A stretch of DNA of 43,421 nt from Arenicellales bacterium (GTDB lineage Bacteria > Pseudomonadota > Gammaproteobacteria > Arenicellales > Poriferihabitantaceae), in NCBI GenBank assembly GCA_028285825.1, contig JAPYNK010000209.1, positions 1-43,421 on the forward strand, given 5' to 3'. Under the pieces are notes generated by a model. That model saw only the letters and a program-made list of their open reading frames with translations, made no database searches and had not been told where the DNA came from. Of the stretch, positions 2,946 through 11,354 are shown in pieces. The first letter of the stretch is position 1; every line of letters starts with the position of its first letter. The position numbers and the translations under genes are program-made.

Positions 2946-4286
2946 ATGAGCCCGATTCTCACCATTCTGGCAATTGGCGATATCCATCTGGGTACAGTGC
3001 CCTCTCAACTGCCTGAAGACCTGTCAAACAGCGGTGTTGGAAAAGATGACCTAACGCCAGCAGCGGCATGGAAGAGCACTGTAGATTATGCAGTCAACAA
3101 TCAGGTTGATGCCGTATTGCTTGCAGGGGACGTAGTGGAAAGCACCAACGCACGTTTCGAGGCTATGGTTCCACTAGAGCAGGGGGTTCGGCAATTAATC
3201 CAAAACAATATCCGAGTCATTGCAGTAGCCGGAAATCATGATACCGATGCCCTGCCCCGACTGGCAAAACTGATCGACGGATTTTGTCTTCTTGGAGAAC
3301 GCGGTGAATGGGAAAAAGCCATCTTGTCAAAAGATGGCAAGCCGGTAGCGGCTATCGTTGGCTGGTCCTTTCCTGAACGACATGTGCGAGATAACCCGAT
3401 TGCCATGCTCGATCAGCAAGCACTTGGCCTTGCATCTCAAGCTTTCTGCAAAATCGGCTTGCTGCATGGAGACCTCGATGCATCAGGTGGGCCCTATGCA
3501 CCCATCAAAACTGCCGATCTGCGTTCCAGTGGTTTTGATGCCTGGCTTCTGGGACATATTCACAAGCCATCCCTGACAAAAACGACGGACAAGTCAGCCA
3601 GAGACGCTATCGGATATCTGGGTTCCCTGGTCGGACTTGATCCGACAGAAACGGGGCCCCATGGACCATGGATTCTGAAAATGTCTGCAACCGGCTTGCA
3701 TGAAATCAGGCATATCCCGATTGCGCCTCTTCGCTGGGAAATGGCATGCATTGCAACCGATCAAGTGGAAAACACAGAAGAACTCTCAGATTTACTGCTC
3801 GAACATGCCACTCAAACTGTACAAAGAATCAAAGATGATGAGGCTGTTCCGAATGTACTGGGTATACGGGCAACACTTACTGGCCGTTGCAGTTGTCATC
3901 AGGAAATTCAAGCATGGATTGATAAGCGCGAGTTCGAAAAAATACAAAGATTAGTTGGCAATACATTAATCTTCTACAATAAAGTTGTCAATTTATCGGA
4001 TCCCCAAATCAATATTGAAGAGATTGCTTCGGGCGATGATCCGGCCGCTTTACTGGCTCAGCGAATTCTTGCACTGGAAAATAACCAGCCTGAAGCAGTT
4101 GAGCTCGTCAGGCAAGGGCGCATTCACATGGAAGAAGTGGTCAGTGAAAGATGCTGGCAACCCGTATATGAGCATCGAAATGCCCTTGACGTTCTCTCAG
4201 ACGAACACTTGAGATATCTACTAATCCGCGCTGGGAAGAATGCTCTACATAACATGTTGGGCCAAAAGCCGGAAATCAGTACATGA
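2946..4286 (+). CDS. Metallophosphoesterase, SbcD/YhaO-like DNA exonuclease subunit
   Basis: This 446-residue calcineurin-like phosphoesterase has the full metal-binding set in order: GDIHLG (11-16), GDVVES (61-66), AGNHD (95-99), LLHGD (182-186) and GHIHK (203-207). That pattern is the Mre11/SbcD nuclease fold, which in complex with a Rad50/SbcC ATPase trims DNA ends and hairpins. The C-terminal 200 residues are the less conserved capping and partner-binding part. Its stop overlaps the start of the ATPase gene (ATGA at 4283-4286), indicating coupled translation and a two-subunit complex. The layout is closest to B. subtilis YhaO, as judged from the partner gene. Its start follows about 100 bp with no recognisable gene after proS. 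Confidence 0.88.
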   Translation: MSPILTILAIGDIHLGTVPSQLPEDLSNSGVGKDDLTPAAAWKSTVDYAVNNQVDAVLLAGDVVESTNARFEAMVPLEQGVRQLIQNNIRVIAVAGNHDTDALPRLAKLIDGFCLLGERGEWEKAILSKDGKPVAAIVGWSFPERHVRDNPIAMLDQQALGLASQAFCKIGLLHGDLDASGGPYAPIKTADLRSSGFDAWLLGHIHKPSLTKTTDKSARDAIGYLGSLVGLDPTETGPHGPWILKMSATGLHEIRHIPIAPLRWEMACIATDQVENTEELSDLLLEHATQTVQRIKDDEAVPNVLGIRATLTGRCSCHQEIQAWIDKREFEKIQRLVGNTLIFYNKVVNLSDPQINIEEIASGDDPAALLAQRILALENNQPEAVELVRQGRIHMEEVVSERCWQPVYEHRNALDVLSDEHLRYLLIRAGKNALHNMLGQKPEIST

Positions 4287-7200
4287 TTCTGAAGCACCTG
4301 AATATCAATCGATTGCCCGGCATCGATGCGCCTTTTCAGGTCGAGTTCAAGGGATCTGGATTTCACATTGTTCATGGCCCGAATGGGATCGGAAAATCCA
4401 GCCTTTGCATGGCAGTTGAACAGTTGTACTGGAGCAACCAAAAAGCCGGTACAACGGTATTCGTAACCGGTCAACTTGAAATTGATGGCGTGCTCTGGTC
4501 TATCGAACGTGAAGGAAAAAGCCACAATTGGTTACGAATTGACGGACAGGAATCGGACCCCCCCGAACTACCGCCACCCCATCAAGCCAAGTGTTTCTTC
4601 CTGCAGCTGCGAGACTTGATCGCCCCATCACAAGACAGCTTGTCCGACATCGCAACTCAGATTAACCGGCAAATGGCCGGTGGCTTCGACCTTGATGCAG
4701 TCGTTGAATCATATCCGATGCTGACCAAGCATCGAACAAGGAATCTTGGCAAAGCCTTTTCCAATGCCGACCTTGACATAGAAAAAGAACAGAGAACACA
4801 GTCCAGTCTTCAATCCCGACAAGACCATCTTGAAACACTTGAAAAAGAGCTGGTGTCTGCCAGGGAAGAAACAAACCGTGAAGCCAGCATAGACCGAGCA
4901 TTGGGGTTGCTCGAAAAACGAAATAAAGTTAATCGACTGCGCATTGACTTGAACAGTTTTTCCCCTGAAATCGGCAAGCTGCGGGGGGATGAAATTGAGA
5001 GGCTGGATAAAGCTGAAAAAAGGATTCAAGGTTATTCTGAAGACATGAAACGCTTGAATCTGGATGTCACATCAGCCCGAGATGAACAGCGGGAAACCCG
5101 GTTGTCCGACCCATTGGATTCGGACAGTCTCACCACTCAAAAAGCAAGGGCCGACAATCTGATTCGACTCGAAGACCTCATCGCAACCATCAAAAGAGAT
5201 ATTGCCAGCCACAAGGGGGAACTTTCAAAAGCAGTGGAGGCAATCGGGGGTACCGTCAATATGGAGCGTCAATTCCAACTGAGAGAACACGGGCAATTGT
5301 ATGAGTTGCTGGGAAGATGTGTGACCACACATAATAGGAAAGCGATCATCACGACAAAGATTGAACTTCTCGGGAAATCTACCACGAATAATTTGGGTGA
5401 ATCGAATACCGGCCAGCTTGAAAGTGCAATTTCCGCCCTGAGGATGTGGCTTCGAGCATCAACCTGCCAAAAGCCACCTTCTGCAACAACCAATCTAAAG
5501 TGGTGGATGACAGGTGGGATTGTTCTGGGCGTTTTGGGGGGAGTTCTGGCTTATGCTGTATCTTCGTCATTCCTTTTACTGGCTGGTACGGGATTGGGAC
5601 TTCTGGCTCTTGCCCTACTCCTGTTCCAGCCTAATGATCGCTCTCCGGCGACTTCAGAATCCAGGGAAGAAGCCGAAACAAGTTATCGACTAACCAAACA
5701 TGCTGAACCCGATCAATGGGATGTTCCGTCTGTCAAGAATTTGCTGATGCAACTCGAAAACGAACTTTCCAAACTATCCGCCACAGTTCAGTTTGCACAG
5801 AAAAAACAGGACGAACTTGAAACGCTGAAACATGAACTGGAAGTGGTTCAAGCCGATGAAGGGGAACTTGATCTTGAATGTCGGACACTCGCTAAAGAAC
5901 TTGACCTTCAGCATATACCGGATATGGAACTTGTCGATTATGCACGTGCCCTTGGTCACGTTAGTGAAGTTCGGATTACTCTAGCTGGACTTGAAGCAAA
6001 ATGTCTTGAGTCACAGAATAGTCATGCCGAAGGGCTTGGGCAACTGACAGACTGTATCACTCAGCATCTCGTGAACAAACCACGTAATGGACTTGAAGCA
6101 AAAGCAGTAATCGATTCATTGAGCGATAGAAGCAATCGCCTGAAGCAGGCCCTATCCGAGGAAAAGTCGGCCTTGCGACAAATCGAAAGAATCAACTCCG
6201 AGAAAGAACAGGCCGAACAGAACATTCGAGATATCTATGAGCATTTGTCACTTGATCAGGGTGATACCCTTAAACTCAGGGAAATGCTGGATCAACAGGA
6301 AGAATATGCCGGGTTGCGCGATCAAGTCTCAAAACTCGAAAGTCAGATTGAACTGGTTGTACAGGAATTAAAGTCTGCAAATGAAACTCGTCTGGAAAAT
6401 CTGTCTTTCGAGGAGTTGCAACAACTCAAGCAACAGTCTGAAGAAGCCAGGCAGAGAGTTGAAGATATCTCGGGAGAAATCAGCGAAATCCAGACTTTGA
6501 CTAATCAGGTCAGGCAGGGAAGTTCAATGCAGGACCTGATTGCAAAGCGTGAGAATGCCAGAAGCGGCCTGCAGGATGGGCTTGATGCCCAATTGCAATC
6601 ACAGGCCGTGAAATTCCTAATCAACCAAGTAAAAGATCAGTATGAGCAAAAACACATGCCACCCATGTTTGAGCGGGCAAAGCTTCATTTTGCCCGCTTT
6701 ACCCACAATTCCTATGAGCTGCAGATTGGACGTCATGAAGGCAAACCGACCTTGCGGGCGATGGAACTGAAAACGGGCAAGATGCGCGAGATTGACCATT
6801 TGTCAGATGGAACCCGGGTCCAGTTGCTGATTGCCGCCCGCATCGCATTTGCCGAAGAAATTGAAAAAGGCCTGACCCTTCCGTTTTTTCTTGATGAAGC
6901 TCTGGATCAAAGCGATCCACAACGCTTTGAAGCCATCATAGGCTGCCTTGGTCAGGTCTCAACTGACCAGAAACGGCAAATTGTATATCTTACGAGTGAT
7001 CCGGTTGACCGGATTCGAATTGAAAATGCCCTGGAGCTTGCAGGTTGCAAGCTCGCTTCTGCCATTGATCTCGGAGCAATCCGGAAAATGTCGGTGGGCG
7101 TGGATGATGCAGGCAAACTCGAAATCAAATCGGAAAACGACATTCCAATGCCATCAGGCCAGCCGTACTCACAATATGCCGTCGATCTGGCTATACCAGC

Positions 7201-7783
7201 ATTCATACCAACTCAAGGGTGGTTTGGCCAATCAATCAGCTATGTGTTACCCGAAAACAATGAACTTTTGTACAGGTTTCATAAAAATGGCATCCAATCA
7301 GCCGGACAGTGGGACATCGTCGAGGGCCAGCCACTCGCTGATGAATTATGCGAGGGGTTCCTGGATCCAGAGGAAATGAAAACCCGTATCGAGTTATTGA
7401 GGATATTCTGCGAGCTGTGGTCATTGGGCCGAGGCCGCCCTGTCGATCGACATGATCTGCAGAACAGTCATGCAATTAGCGATCGATATATTCAGGGTGT
7501 TTCGGATATTGCCAGGGAAGTCCGGGGAAATGCATCAAAGCTGATCGAGATACTGAGAGAAAGAAGAGACAGCAGAAGCAGTGGACTCCGTCTGAACCTA
7601 ATCGAAAAACTCGAACAGTTTTTTTTGAACAACGGTCAAATTGAAGATTGCAGAGTACTGGATAGGGATGAACTATTGCTCAAGATGCGTGCGACTCCGG
7701 CAGCGGATAAGCTATCGGAAGATACAAGCCTAAAACTGATTCATAAATGGCAGGCCCTGGCAGACCGATTTTCCAGCTCATGA
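4283..7783 (+). CDS. Rad50/SbcC/YhaN-like AAA ATPase with membrane segments and extra C-terminal domain
   Basis: A 1166-residue partner of the upstream phosphoesterase. A Walker A (GPNGIGKSS, 32-40) opens the ATPase head. Long Glu/Lys/Gln-rich coiled coils follow, broken near 405-450 by two hydrophobic stretches (GGIVLGVLGGVLAYAV and LLLAGTGLGLLALALLLF), as in YhaN-type proteins. The second half-head has an ABC signature LSDGTRVQL (about 840) and Walker B FFLDEALDQSD (about 867). The switch region reads VYLTSDP, without the usual His. Most relatives end soon after; here about 230 residues follow (from about 935), mixed then helical and charged, and not recognised by me. It ends 5 bp from the convergent cupin gene. 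A DNA-end processing or anti-phage role is inference. Confidence 0.85.
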   Translation: MILKHLNINRLPGIDAPFQVEFKGSGFHIVHGPNGIGKSSLCMAVEQLYWSNQKAGTTVFVTGQLEIDGVLWSIEREGKSHNWLRIDGQESDPPELPPPHQAKCFFLQLRDLIAPSQDSLSDIATQINRQMAGGFDLDAVVESYPMLTKHRTRNLGKAFSNADLDIEKEQRTQSSLQSRQDHLETLEKELVSAREETNREASIDRALGLLEKRNKVNRLRIDLNSFSPEIGKLRGDEIERLDKAEKRIQGYSEDMKRLNLDVTSARDEQRETRLSDPLDSDSLTTQKARADNLIRLEDLIATIKRDIASHKGELSKAVEAIGGTVNMERQFQLREHGQLYELLGRCVTTHNRKAIITTKIELLGKSTTNNLGESNTGQLESAISALRMWLRASTCQKPPSATTNLKWWMTGGIVLGVLGGVLAYAVSSSFLLLAGTGLGLLALALLLFQPNDRSPATSESREEAETSYRLTKHAEPDQWDVPSVKNLLMQLENELSKLSATVQFAQKKQDELETLKHELEVVQADEGELDLECRTLAKELDLQHIPDMELVDYARALGHVSEVRITLAGLEAKCLESQNSHAEGLGQLTDCITQHLVNKPRNGLEAKAVIDSLSDRSNRLKQALSEEKSALRQIERINSEKEQAEQNIRDIYEHLSLDQGDTLKLREMLDQQEEYAGLRDQVSKLESQIELVVQELKSANETRLENLSFEELQQLKQQSEEARQRVEDISGEISEIQTLTNQVRQGSSMQDLIAKRENARSGLQDGLDAQLQSQAVKFLINQVKDQYEQKHMPPMFERAKLHFARFTHNSYELQIGRHEGKPTLRAMELKTGKMREIDHLSDGTRVQLLIAARIAFAEEIEKGLTLPFFLDEALDQSDPQRFEAIIGCLGQVSTDQKRQIVYLTSDPVDRIRIENALELAGCKLASAIDLGAIRKMSVGVDDAGKLEIKSENDIPMPSGQPYSQYAVDLAIPAFIPTQGWFGQSISYVLPENNELLYRFHKNGIQSAGQWDIVEGQPLADELCEGFLDPEEMKTRIELLRIFCELWSLGRGRPVDRHDLQNSHAISDRYIQGVSDIAREVRGNASKLIEILRERRDSRSSGLRLNLIEKLEQFFLNNGQIEDCRVLDRDELLLKMRATPAADKLSEDTSLKLIHKWQALADRFSSS

Positions 7784-7788
7784 TCTTC

Positions 7789-8457
7789 TCATGAAATTTT
7801 CCTCTCGAATTCAGAAACCTGTCTCAAGTCTCCTCCCTGCCAAAGGTAAAGCATGACAAGAGGTTCATCGCGAGTCTCGAAAAAATGGGGAACAGATGAA
7901 GAAACAAAGACAATCTCTCCTGATTTCTTGAACGACTTCGGCTGATCACGTCCAATCTGAAACCAGGCAGACCCAAACAGAATCCAGTAGATCTCTTCAG
8001 CATCATGCCAATGCATGGGATATTCCACATTTGCCCCCCAAACCCCCACTCCACTCCGTAGTTGGTTGCTGATGAAGGGACCTAGCTGCCCGGTGATTTC
8101 AGAAAAAGCATACCCGGACAGGAGGGCATCGCCTACTACATGGTCTGCCTTGCTGTAGGTCTGTTCCCAGAATAATGACTCACGATACGCAATGAACTGG
8201 GACAAGAGCTTTCCAGCAAGCGATTGGGGGTCCGGACTGATCTCATTGAGTGAATGGACAACCGGCAACATTCTGGCCCCAACATCACGCCAGCACCGTT
8301 CAATGCCCTTGAAGCCACCTTCAAATTTACGAACATGCGGATTTTCGCACTCAGCGACCATATTCTTCATTGTCAGGAGAATTTCAGACTGTATCTCTCG
8401 AGTTTCGGAGGCTCGGGCACTTCCTGAAGTTGTCTGAGTTTGGCAGATCCGGCTCAA
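7789..8457 (-). CDS. DMSP-lyase-like cupin (DddQ-type active site)
   Basis: A 222-residue protein with a C-terminal cupin. DddQ cleaves dimethylsulfoniopropionate to dimethyl sulfide and acrylate with a metal held by two His, a Glu and a Tyr. Here the motif Y146-x2-H149-x-H151-x3-E155-x-Y157 and H191 keep the spacing of Y120, H123, H125, E129, Y131 and H163 of Ruegeria DddQ as I recall them. The segment around YPMHWHDAEEIYWIL and the end DEPLVMLYLWQGGDL are typical of DMSP-lyase-like cupins. The N-terminal 120 residues are helical, as in that family. Its start overlaps the stop of the M24 gene by 4 bp, so the two form one operon. The substrate is not proven; related cupins of unknown substrate exist. 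Confidence 0.75.
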   Translation of the reverse strand: MSRICQTQTTSGSARASETREIQSEILLTMKNMVAECENPHVRKFEGGFKGIERCWRDVGARMLPVVHSLNEISPDPQSLAGKLLSQFIAYRESLFWEQTYSKADHVVGDALLSGYAFSEITGQLGPFISNQLRSGVGVWGANVEYPMHWHDAEEIYWILFGSAWFQIGRDQPKSFKKSGEIVFVSSSVPHFFETRDEPLVMLYLWQGGDLRQVSEFERKIS

Positions 8458-9605
8458 ACTACCACCATATCGGTCGCATGACGACTCAACCTCTCAATAC
8501 CGTCATCAACGACTCGCACTGTCTGACCAAGAGTCATCGAATTGCCTGACTGGCTGTTCATCAGGATAATATGTACAAAAAACACATTATTCGCCTGCAT
8601 GACATAGGGGTTGTCAGCATAAAACATCGGATAGTCCATCCAGATCGGACTGAACATGGCTCCAAGGCTGTATCCGCAAGCATTCATTCTATGCTCTCGA
8701 TAACCATGCTCATCCAGAACCCTTGCATGTTCCGAGAATACCGCACCCATCGTCTGACCGGGCCGTATTGAGTCCAGACATGCTTCCATCGCTTCAGAAC
8801 AGGCCTTGTGCATGTTCTCGTGCTCTGCAGAAACGCCGCCAATCAGAAAAGTTTGCATGAGGCATGCATGATATCGTCGATAGGCCCCGGCATACTCGAG
8901 AGTGAGCTGATCCTGCCGGTCCAGGGTTCTGCGACCCGAAAAATATCGGCATAGCAGACCACTTTTACCGGAGCCAATAATGAATTCATTTCCGGGATAA
9001 TCACCCCCTCCACGAAATACGGCAGATTGCATTGCCGCGAGAATGTCTCCCTCAAAGACCCCGGGACCGGCCGTTTCGATAGCTGCGGTCATGGCATCAT
9101 CGGCAAGTTCTGCCGCCCGCCTCACGAAAACAATTTCCGACTCGCTCTTCACTGCACGAATTGCTCCGACCAGAGCGGATGTATCCCTGAGTTCGCAGAA
9201 TCCGTTTAATGCCTGTTCCAGACCCTTGCCATATGCTGCCGATAACCCATAGGCATTGTATTCACACCCCAGCGTCTTGCCATAAACCCCATAGTCGGAT
9301 AATGCGTTGCGTAAATCCATGGATGGATTTGCATATTCTCCATCCACCCAGATCCGGATGTCCTGAATATCCGAAGTATGTTGGGCCTGACGGAGATCCG
9401 GTGCCCGGGTCAGGAGAAAAAACCGACCGTCAACCCCCAGATACAGGCACTGGAAAAAGCAGAAGCCGAATGTGTCATACCCGGTCAGGTAGTACATGCT
9501 CTCCTGCTTGAAGATGAGCAGTCCATCCAGATTCTGATTTTCGAGCTCCTGAATGACTCTAGCCCTACGCTGTTCCAGCTCTGATGATTCGAAGTGTAAT
9601 GACAT
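8454..9605 (-). CDS. M24-fold (creatinase/prolidase-like) protein lacking metal ligands
   Basis: A 383-residue protein with an N-terminal creatinase domain (about 1-145, including ESMYYLTGYDTFGF) and a C-terminal pita-bread domain. In metal-dependent M24 peptidases two Asp, one His and two Glu bind the metals. The equivalent places here hold E237, A247/C248, Y322, H355 and G370, so classical metallopeptidase activity is unlikely. Creatinase shares this metal-free condition, and the DMSP lyase DddP belongs to the same fold but has its own metal set, which I do not see. This subgroup is commonly annotated as Xaa-Pro peptidase. It leads the operon with the DMSP-lyase-like cupin. A C-N or C-S bond hydrolase of a small compound is inference. 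Confidence 0.75.
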   Translation of the reverse strand: MSLHFESSELEQRRARVIQELENQNLDGLLIFKQESMYYLTGYDTFGFCFFQCLYLGVDGRFFLLTRAPDLRQAQHTSDIQDIRIWVDGEYANPSMDLRNALSDYGVYGKTLGCEYNAYGLSAAYGKGLEQALNGFCELRDTSALVGAIRAVKSESEIVFVRRAAELADDAMTAAIETAGPGVFEGDILAAMQSAVFRGGGDYPGNEFIIGSGKSGLLCRYFSGRRTLDRQDQLTLEYAGAYRRYHACLMQTFLIGGVSAEHENMHKACSEAMEACLDSIRPGQTMGAVFSEHARVLDEHGYREHRMNACGYSLGAMFSPIWMDYPMFYADNPYVMQANNVFFVHIILMNSQSGNSMTLGQTVRVVDDGIERLSRHATDMVVV

Positions 9606-10049
9606 GCTGCAAATTCAACCTGTTTTGAATAAATCGTCCCTATCCGTCGAGAGAAGCTGCCAATGATTGATGAGAGAAAGCGGCTTTCCCGCCATAGTGA
9701 TCCTGTATAACGGGCAATTACCCTGATACCGGAAACAGGGAAGTCAGCGGGCACTAACCGAGCCCGCCCCTAGTCCCCCAGCGTATTTCGCGGCACACTG
9801 AAGCGGTCGGCAGATTTCCCTTCACATAGCCCGTGCCATGGACACTTGATGGCATTCCCCGCTGAACAAAAGATTCGCGTCAGTGGAGAAATTATACTGA
9901 ATTCCCAAATTCTCGCAAACTGTCTCTGCCAGACTCGGCTCACTTTCCACAACCGGAAAAGCCAAGTACCCGCAATACCGAATTATTGCATCAATCCCTT
10001 TTTTGCCTTGCAGTATAATTCCGCCAAGCCAATCATTCATCTCTTTTTC
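9606..10049. other. Divergent intergenic region with two stem-loops
   Basis: This 444-bp gap separates the minus-strand M24-cupin operon from metY. It contains CCCTG/CAGGG (9721-9725 with 9736-9740) and GCGGGC/GCCCGC (9747-9752 with 9762-9767, 9-nt loop) as adjacent stem-loops. Neither has a T-run. I saw no known SAM- or SAH-riboswitch consensus, and no convincing gene. The region must hold the promoter of the minus-strand operon. Confidence 0.5.
10014..10019 (+). promoter_or_regulatory. Probable -10 element of the metY promoter
   Basis: A perfect TATAAT lies 30 bp before the metY start codon, after a T-rich stretch. No convincing -35 hexamer stands 16-18 bp upstream. If used, the leader would be only about 25 nt, leaving no room for a riboswitch. 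Confidence 0.45.
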
Positions 10050-11354
10050 ATGCCTCGGCCTATCCGTACCCGATTTGACACTCTCTCCCTGCACGCCGGT
10101 CAACGGCCTGACCCTGTCCACGGTGCGCGAGCAGTTCCCATCTATCAAACCACTAGCTATGTATTCAGGGACAGCGACCATGCTGCATCCCTGTTCAACA
10201 TGGAAAGACCCGGACATGCCTATTCCCGTCTTTCAAATCCAACGACAGCAGTACTTGAAGAGCGAATTGCAGCACTTGAAGATGGAGTTGGAGGCATTGC
10301 AACTTCAAGCGGCCAGGCTGCACTGCACCTGGCGATTGCCACCATCATGGACTCCGGTTCGCATATTGTTTCCTCAAACGCCATCTATGGCGGATCCCAT
10401 AACCTGTTCCAGTACACTCTGCCCCGATTCGGAATCGAAACGACGTTCATCTCCCCTCGCGACATAAGCGGAATCCGCAAGGCCATCCGTCCCAATACCC
10501 GACTGATTTTTGGGGAGACCATTGGCAACCCCGGTAACGATGTCATGAACATTCCGGCAATTGCCGAAATTTCTCATGAGTATAAAATCCCCCTGATGAT
10601 AGACTCCACGTTTACCACGCCATATCTCATGAAACCGTTTGATCATGGGGCAAGCCTGATCATGCACTCAGCCACCAAATTCCTGTGTGGTCATGGTACG
10701 GTCATTGGCGGCATGCTCGTCGATCATGGCCGATTTGACTGGGATGGCAGCGGCAAATTCGAAACTCTTTCAGAACCCTATTCAGGTTTCCATGACATGA
10801 CTTTCGATGAAGAGATGAGCCAGGGTGCGTTTTTACTGAGGGCACGTCGTGAAGGCATGCGCGACTTCGGAGCCTGCATGGCACCAACAGTGGCTTTCTA
10901 CATCCTGCAAGGCATCGAAACGCTCTCGCTCAGAATGCAGCGGCATATTGAAAATACCCGCAAGATAATCGAATTTCTCCAGTCGTCCGACCAGATCGAA
11001 CATGTCAGCTATCCCGAACTACCCGAACACCCCGACTATGAATTGGCCAAGACCCTGCTTCCACATGGGGCAGGTTCGATCTTCAGTTTTTCCCTCAAGG
11101 GAGGACGCAAAGCCGGGCAGACGTTTACCGAAGGGCTCGATGTTTTCTCGCATTTGGCAAATGTTGGAGATGCAAAATCCCTGGTCATTCACCCAGCCAG
11201 CACGACTCATCACCGCATGAGTAAAGAGGATCTGGAAAAAGCCGGAATTACCGAGGGTACGATCCGGCTATCGGTTGGTCTTGAAGACATTAATGACCTG
11301 ACTGAAGATCTGTCAAAAGGGTTGCATCTCGCGAAAAAATCAACCGGAAAATAA
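10050..11354 (+). CDS. metY: O-acetylhomoserine sulfhydrylase (PLP-dependent)
   Basis: The enzyme makes L-homocysteine from O-acetylhomoserine and sulfide in direct-sulfhydrylation methionine synthesis. The start at 10050 (MPRPIRTRFDTLSLHAGQ) matches the family's beginning and gives 434 residues, the usual size; a longer open frame back to 9846 has no family support. Visible residues of the Cys/Met-metabolism PLP fold are YSR (58-60), which reaches the cofactor phosphate of the neighbouring subunit, D185 facing the pyridine nitrogen, and K210 in HSATKF, the Schiff-base lysine. The spacing after it (CGHGTVIGG) favours MetY over MetB/MetC. The succinyl-specific MetZ remains possible. The alpha/beta hydrolase gene follows 15 bp later. 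Confidence 0.88.
   Translation: MPRPIRTRFDTLSLHAGQRPDPVHGARAVPIYQTTSYVFRDSDHAASLFNMERPGHAYSRLSNPTTAVLEERIAALEDGVGGIATSSGQAALHLAIATIMDSGSHIVSSNAIYGGSHNLFQYTLPRFGIETTFISPRDISGIRKAIRPNTRLIFGETIGNPGNDVMNIPAIAEISHEYKIPLMIDSTFTTPYLMKPFDHGASLIMHSATKFLCGHGTVIGGMLVDHGRFDWDGSGKFETLSEPYSGFHDMTFDEEMSQGAFLLRARREGMRDFGACMAPTVAFYILQGIETLSLRMQRHIENTRKIIEFLQSSDQIEHVSYPELPEHPDYELAKTLLPHGAGSIFSFSLKGGRKAGQTFTEGLDVFSHLANVGDAKSLVIHPASTTHHRMSKEDLEKAGITEGTIRLSVGLEDINDLTEDLSKGLHLAKKSTGK

What the first reader, a model, noticed from the sequence alone, without database searches (positions are those of the whole stretch)
7789..9605. Two-gene operon: DMSP-lyase-like cupin with a metal-free M24-fold protein
The cupin keeps all six DddQ-type residues in order. 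Its translationally coupled partner has the fold of DddP and creatinase yet lacks every canonical metal ligand. A pairing of the two suggests a pathway on a DMSP-like or betaine-like compound where the M24 protein prepares or consumes the cupin's substrate.
Basis: partly seen in the sequence, partly recalled or inferred. Interest (0 to 1): 0.65.

Follow-up and report, generated by a model that had tools for sequence, protein, structure and literature searches.

The report
DddQ-like cupin beside metal-free M24 hydrolase

Summary
Window 7789-8457(-) is a PF16867 (DMSP_lyase) cupin with all six DddQ residues. Window 8454-9605(-) is an M24-fold protein in which all five metal ligands of the family are replaced. 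Three results weaken the interpretation. (1) The six residues are shared by nearly every distant PF16867 relative examined, a family reported to include enzymes of unknown function, so they do not prove DMSP cleavage; sequence, wider pocket residues and fold search still place the cupin nearest DddQ. (2) The M24 protein is not DddP-like. It belongs to a conserved metal-free subfamily nearest EutD/DoeA ectoine hydrolase. About half of the sampled members sit in an alphaproteobacterial lgt-midA-pgeF-M24-prs neighbourhood, others beside MttB-type methyltransferases. (3) The pairing occurs in all 7 genomes of the genus and was found nowhere else. Sister genera keep the M24 gene and its divergent metY but have the cupin elsewhere, so the cupin most likely joined a pre-existing M24 locus. 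The same genomes carry a separate acuI + dddP-like pair, a better candidate for DMSP cleavage. Best reading: a DddQ-type lyase of unproven substrate behind an older EutD/creatinase-type hydrolase. Both are new members of known kinds.

The parts
7789..8457 (-). Cupin, PF16867 (DMSP_lyase) family, 222 aa from TTG; predicted metal site H149, H151, E155, H191 and tyrosines Y146, Y157
   Evidence: residue roles from DddQ literature
8454..9605 (-). Metal-free M24-fold protein, 383 aa; E237, C248, Y312, H345, L359 at the five ligand positions; invariant or nearly invariant T77, N206, R220, Y245, H246, R306, W322, D324
8454..8457 (-). 4-nt overlap of the M24 stop (TGA) and the cupin start (TTG); relatives have a gap of about 12-20 nt instead
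10050..11354 (+). Divergent metY (O-acetylhomoserine aminocarboxypropyltransferase, NF006004 771 bits); the conserved neighbour of this M24 gene across three genera. ORF opens at 9846; first ATG matching relatives is 10050

Best explanation
The two genes are most likely co-transcribed but do not form a proven pathway. The upstream gene is an old, metal-independent EutD/creatinase-type M24 hydrolase. By analogy with EutD it would open a C-N bond of a small zwitterionic or ring compound using invariant carboxylate, histidine and tyrosine side chains (E237, H246, H345, Y312) instead of two metals. The downstream gene is a later arrival: a DddQ-type cupin with one divalent metal on three His and one Glu, in which a tyrosine (Y157, or Y146) would take the alpha proton of a carboxylated onium substrate and expel the leaving group (beta-elimination). 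DMSP or DMSOP is the leading candidate substrate, unproven. SHOWN by computation: families, residue conservation, fold, genus-wide adjacency, absence of the pair elsewhere in the sample. INFERRED: co-transcription, all chemistry, substrates, and the independence of the two functions.
For: Cupin: PF16867 well above cut-off; best solved relatives are DddQ enzymes by sequence and by fold, the latter with a poor model; the six catalytic residues and the wider pattern W97, Y101, Y116, E120, G126, R134, W140 match DddQ of R. lacuscaerulensis, while a large divergent group in the order differs. M24: best NCBIfam model is ectoine hydrolase, best solved relative DoeA/EutD by sequence and by fold, TM 0.92, model pLDDT 90.5; DddP ranks 45th. 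Age and independence: M24 orthologues at 50-62% identity across Alphaproteobacteria lie in lgt-midA-pgeF-M24-prs; G010 and G015 keep M24 with divergent metY-abh-mtaD but no adjacent cupin. Purifying selection on both: dN/dS about 0.04-0.07 (M24) and 0.13-0.21 (cupin).
Against: The adjacency held in 7 of 7 genomes, including G004, where the cupin's other neighbour (SbcC-like gene) is not found and cupin identity is down to 45%; that is more persistence than an indifferent neighbour needs to show. No biochemistry is known to me for either protein's close relatives. EutD's chemistry is taken from a secondary account (PMC8739950) and general knowledge; the structural paper was not held.
Confidence: 0.6

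Rival explanations
1. One reading: the M24 protein and the cupin act in sequence on one DMSP-like or betaine-like compound, one making or consuming the other's substrate or product.
For: Same strand, overlap or short gap, adjacency in 7 of 7 genus genomes; M24 orthologues in other families of the order adjoin MttB methyltransferases, with BKACE and a 2Fe-2S reductase in one family; the genus holds 6-16 MttB matches per genome, pointing to heavy use of quaternary amines.
Against: The M24 subfamily is far older and wider than the pair and usually lacks any cupin nearby; closest sister genera have M24 and cupin apart; no transporter or other pathway gene is joined to the pair here.
Confidence: 0.17
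2. The cupin is a lyase-like PF16867 member with a different reaction, not a DMSP/DMSOP lyase. (This concerns the cupin alone and overlaps with the best explanation, which leaves the substrate open.)
For: The family is reported to contain members of unknown function (Lei et al. 2018, cited in PMC8520302); the six-residue set is present in nearly all distant relatives, including a soil alphaproteobacterial one inside an ABC-transporter operon; an acuI + dddP-like pair elsewhere could already cover DMSP.
Against: The closest solved relatives are all DddQ and the wider pocket pattern agrees with DddQ; in two other lineages the related cupin lies beside AMP-dependent acyl-CoA synthetase genes, one also with enoyl-CoA hydratases, as expected for acrylate handling.
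Confidence: 0.4
3. The M24 protein is the organism's ectoine hydrolase (EutD/DoeA).
For: Best NCBIfam and best fold match; shares E237, Y245, H246, Y312 and W322 positions with DoeA.
Against: 170 and 140 bits against curated cut-offs of 575 and 613; 23% identity to DoeA; the His aligned in DoeA is an invariant Arg (R220) here; no gene for a EutE-type deacetylase was recognised among the neighbours inspected.
Confidence: 0.06

Closest known systems
DddQ cupin DMSP lyase (PDB 4LA2, 4B29, 5CU1, 5JSO)
   Same: PF16867, single cupin, six catalytic residues in order, Trp in the last strand (W206 = DddQ W178), similar length, much of the wider pocket pattern
   Different: About 20-30% identity; genus cupins form their own clade beside DddQ; no DMSP gene cluster around it; activity unknown
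EutD/DoeA ectoine hydrolase (PDB 6TWJ, 6TWK, 6YO9)
   Same: M24 fold without the metal ligands, TM 0.92, shared Glu, Tyr-His, Gly-Tyr and Trp positions
   Different: 23% identity, far below the curated equivalog cut-offs, Arg instead of His at position 220, different gene neighbourhood
Creatinase (PDB 1CHM, 1KP0)
   Same: Metal-free hydrolase on the same fold (TM about 0.83)
   Different: Lower similarity than EutD; no creatine genes seen here
DddP (M24 DMSP lyase; PDB 4RZY, 4S01)
   Same: Same superfamily fold (TM 0.80)
   Different: DddP is a metalloenzyme; the window protein lacks the ligands and scores 28.8 bits against a cut-off of 600; the genome's DddP-like protein lies on contig C43
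Uncharacterised 'Xaa-Pro peptidase family protein' of alphaproteobacterial lgt-midA-pgeF-M24-prs neighbourhoods
   Same: Same subfamily, 50-62% identity, same active-site set
   Different: Different gene context; no cupin

Membership tests
PF16867 DMSP_lyase cupin family | Profile score above the curated cut-off | tested here: met
   57 bits against 27
DddQ DMSP lyase | Y120, H123, H125, E129, Y131, H163 | tested here: met
   Aligned to Y146, H149, H151, E155, Y157, H191, invariant in 7 genus members; not exclusive to DMSP lyases
DddQ DMSP lyase | Grouping with DddQ to the exclusion of other PF16867 members | tested here: inconclusive
   FastTree puts the genus clade near DddQ with weak deep support (0.59-0.88)
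DddQ DMSP lyase | DMS and acrylate from DMSP | not testable with these tools
   Needs an assay
M24 metallopeptidase (PF00557) | Profile score above cut-off | tested here: met
   105.9 bits against 23
M24 metallopeptidase (PF00557) | Five metal ligands D, D, H, E, E | tested here: not met
   E237, C248, Y312, H345, L359; the same loss across the subfamily
DddP | NCBIfam NF043017 cut-off and DddP metal ligands | tested here: not met
   28.8 bits against 600; ligands absent
EutD/DoeA ectoine hydrolase | Curated equivalog cut-offs TIGR02993 and NF038259 | tested here: not met
   139.9 against 613 and 169.9 against 575
EutD/DoeA ectoine hydrolase | Adjacent eutE deacetylase | tested here: inconclusive
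   None recognised among genes around the pair in the window or relatives, judged from ORFs and selected family scans, not a full EutE profile search
Conserved M24 + cupin operon | Adjacency across genera | tested here: not met
   7/7 in the genus, 0 elsewhere among 80 named loci (the 2 positives are genus members) and the order loci inspected; related cupins in other genera are not next to it

The most novel reading that the evidence does not exclude
The metal-free M24 subfamily is an uncharacterised hydrolase of a methylated onium or related osmolyte, and in this MttB-rich genus it has been joined to a DddQ-type lyase to form a two-step route for a quaternary compound not yet known to be degraded this way.
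Probability: 0.12. Interest if true: 0.6.

Novelty: new member of a known kind. Interest (0 to 1): 0.3.

Why it matters
It shows that the six DddQ residues, a tempting marker for DMSP lyases, occur throughout a wider cupin family and should not be used alone to call DMS production in genomes. It also draws attention to a strongly conserved, metal-free M24 subfamily found beside pgeF in many Alphaproteobacteria, including cultured Phyllobacterium, Rhizobium and Ancylobacter, whose function I could not find assigned and which could be tested in laboratory strains.

Tried and rejected
Rfam search of the window and of the M24-metY gap: nothing. AlphaFold of the cupin was poor (pLDDT 61, 3 sequences), so its fold match is weak support. 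Literature searches for the M24 subfamily beside MttB or pgeF gave nothing relevant. The EutD structure paper was not held. M24 as DddP or as true EutD rejected by scores and residues. Considered and dropped: the cupin as an AraC-type regulator domain or oxalate decarboxylase (below cut-offs or weaker than DddQ). BCCT transporter search: present in the more complete genus members but not found in G000 and not linked to the pair, so uninformative.

Full report
WHAT IS THERE. Window 7789-8457 and 8454-9605, both on the minus strand, are real ORFs. The window is contig C123 of a 2.28-Mb, 81% complete MAG; named close relatives are unclassified Gammaproteobacteria MAGs. The cupin hits PF16867 at 57 bits and its nearest solved relatives are DddQ enzymes. 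The upstream gene is an M24-fold protein with a Creatinase_N domain.

CUPIN ACTIVE SITE. The six DddQ residues listed in PMC4437653 are all present as Y146, H149, H151, E155, Y157, H191, and are invariant in the seven genus members. A wider alignment shows Y146, H149, H151, E155 and Y157 in every PF16867 row examined and H191 in all but one. The set is therefore a family signature. Residues outside it (W97, Y101, Y116, E120, G126, R134, W140) agree with DddQ of R. lacuscaerulensis and differ in a large divergent group of the order, which favours a DddQ-like pocket, but the DddQ of 5CU1 also differs at several of these. Lei et al. 2018, cited in PMC8520302, report by title that the family mixes true DMSP lyases with enzymes of unknown function. 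Known cupin lyases also act on DMSOP, some better than on DMSP (PMC10686828).

M24 ACTIVE SITE. Against P. furiosus prolidase and the genome's own DddP-like protein, the ligands D, D, H, E, E read E237, C248, Y312, H345, L359. In 112 subfamily members at 48% identity or more (some near-duplicates), E237 and Y312 are invariant, H246 and H345 conserved in 111, and R220 invariant where DoeA and prolidase have His. Model pLDDT is 90.5. Foldseek ranks EutD/DoeA first (TM 0.92), with creatinase (0.83) and DddP (0.80) behind. NCBIfam scores for ectoine hydrolase are far below cut-off, so it may work like that group, by inference, but is not filed as a member.

GENE NEIGHBOURHOOD. The pair occurs in all seven genus genomes. 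Outside, the M24 subfamily is widespread without the cupin. Of 119 tree rows, 59 have pgeF or prs nearby, typically in the order lgt-midA-pgeF-M24-prs, annotated so in Rhizobium leguminosarum. Eleven rows from several gammaproteobacterial families adjoin an MttB-type methyltransferase (PF06253), some with a BKACE enzyme, a 2Fe-2S reductase or an OCD/mu-crystallin protein. In the window's family, G010 and G015 keep M24 divergent from metY-abh-mtaD but have no cupin next to it; G015 has a VOC-family gene there instead. In G010 the contig ends 443 bases after M24, but its only close cupin lies on another contig with a different neighbour upstream. Their PF16867 cupins lie on other contigs. So the metY link is older than the cupin link, and the simplest history is that the cupin was gained behind M24 in this genus. 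Loss in the sister genera is not excluded, because the placement of G010 relative to G004 is not resolved in the M24 tree.

RATES AND COUPLING. Pairwise dN/dS is 0.04-0.07 for M24 and 0.13-0.21 for the cupin over the comparisons not saturated at synonymous sites. The 4-nt overlap in the window comes with a TTG start; relatives use a start about 12-20 nt downstream of the M24 stop. Co-transcription is likely; strict coupling is not conserved.

DMSP CONTEXT ELSEWHERE. Contig C43 carries an acuI-type gene (TIGR02823, 413 bits, above cut-off) overlapping a 438-aa M24 gene that keeps metal ligands and scores 542 bits on the DddP model, cut-off 600. G001-G005 have DddP-like hits beside the acuI-type gene, by coordinates. 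This is a better-supported DMSP cleavage candidate than the window pair, though below the curated cut-off.

WHAT THIS MEANS. A joint pathway is not excluded (0.17), since the adjacency has persisted and the genus is rich in MttB genes. My own reading that the functions are independent is likewise inference from neighbourhoods. Sampling limits: MAGs with contig breaks, one named-genome scan, and an order of 109 held genomes. The class sample of 369 genomes found only four further cupins at the threshold used, none next to this M24 in the ORFs inspected.

Noticed in passing
G000:C43:4373-6675 (L035, L224): acuI-type gene overlapping a 438-aa DddP-like M24 gene (542 bits against a cut-off of 600) with metal ligands present; similar neighbours in G001-G005.
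   Followed up: partly
G000-G006, G010, G015: 6-16 MttB-family (PF06253) matches per genome of about 2.3-4.2 Mb, suggesting specialisation on quaternary amines.
   Followed up: partly
L039-L115 and others: The metal-free M24 subfamily sits in a conserved lgt-midA-pgeF-M24-prs neighbourhood in many Alphaproteobacteria; no assigned function found.
   Followed up: partly
window 9605-10050: M24 and metY are divergently transcribed with a shared upstream region, an arrangement conserved in three genera; no Rfam match in it.
   Followed up: partly
L204:2399-5474; L251:1453-4208: Related PF16867 cupins lie beside AMP-dependent acyl-CoA synthetase genes (with enoyl-CoA hydratases in Gemmobacter fulvus; with a RidA-like gene in G321).
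   Followed up: no
window 2946-7783: A calcineurin-type phosphoesterase gene followed by a long AAA-type ATPase gene, SbcCD-like, convergent with the cupin.
   Followed up: no
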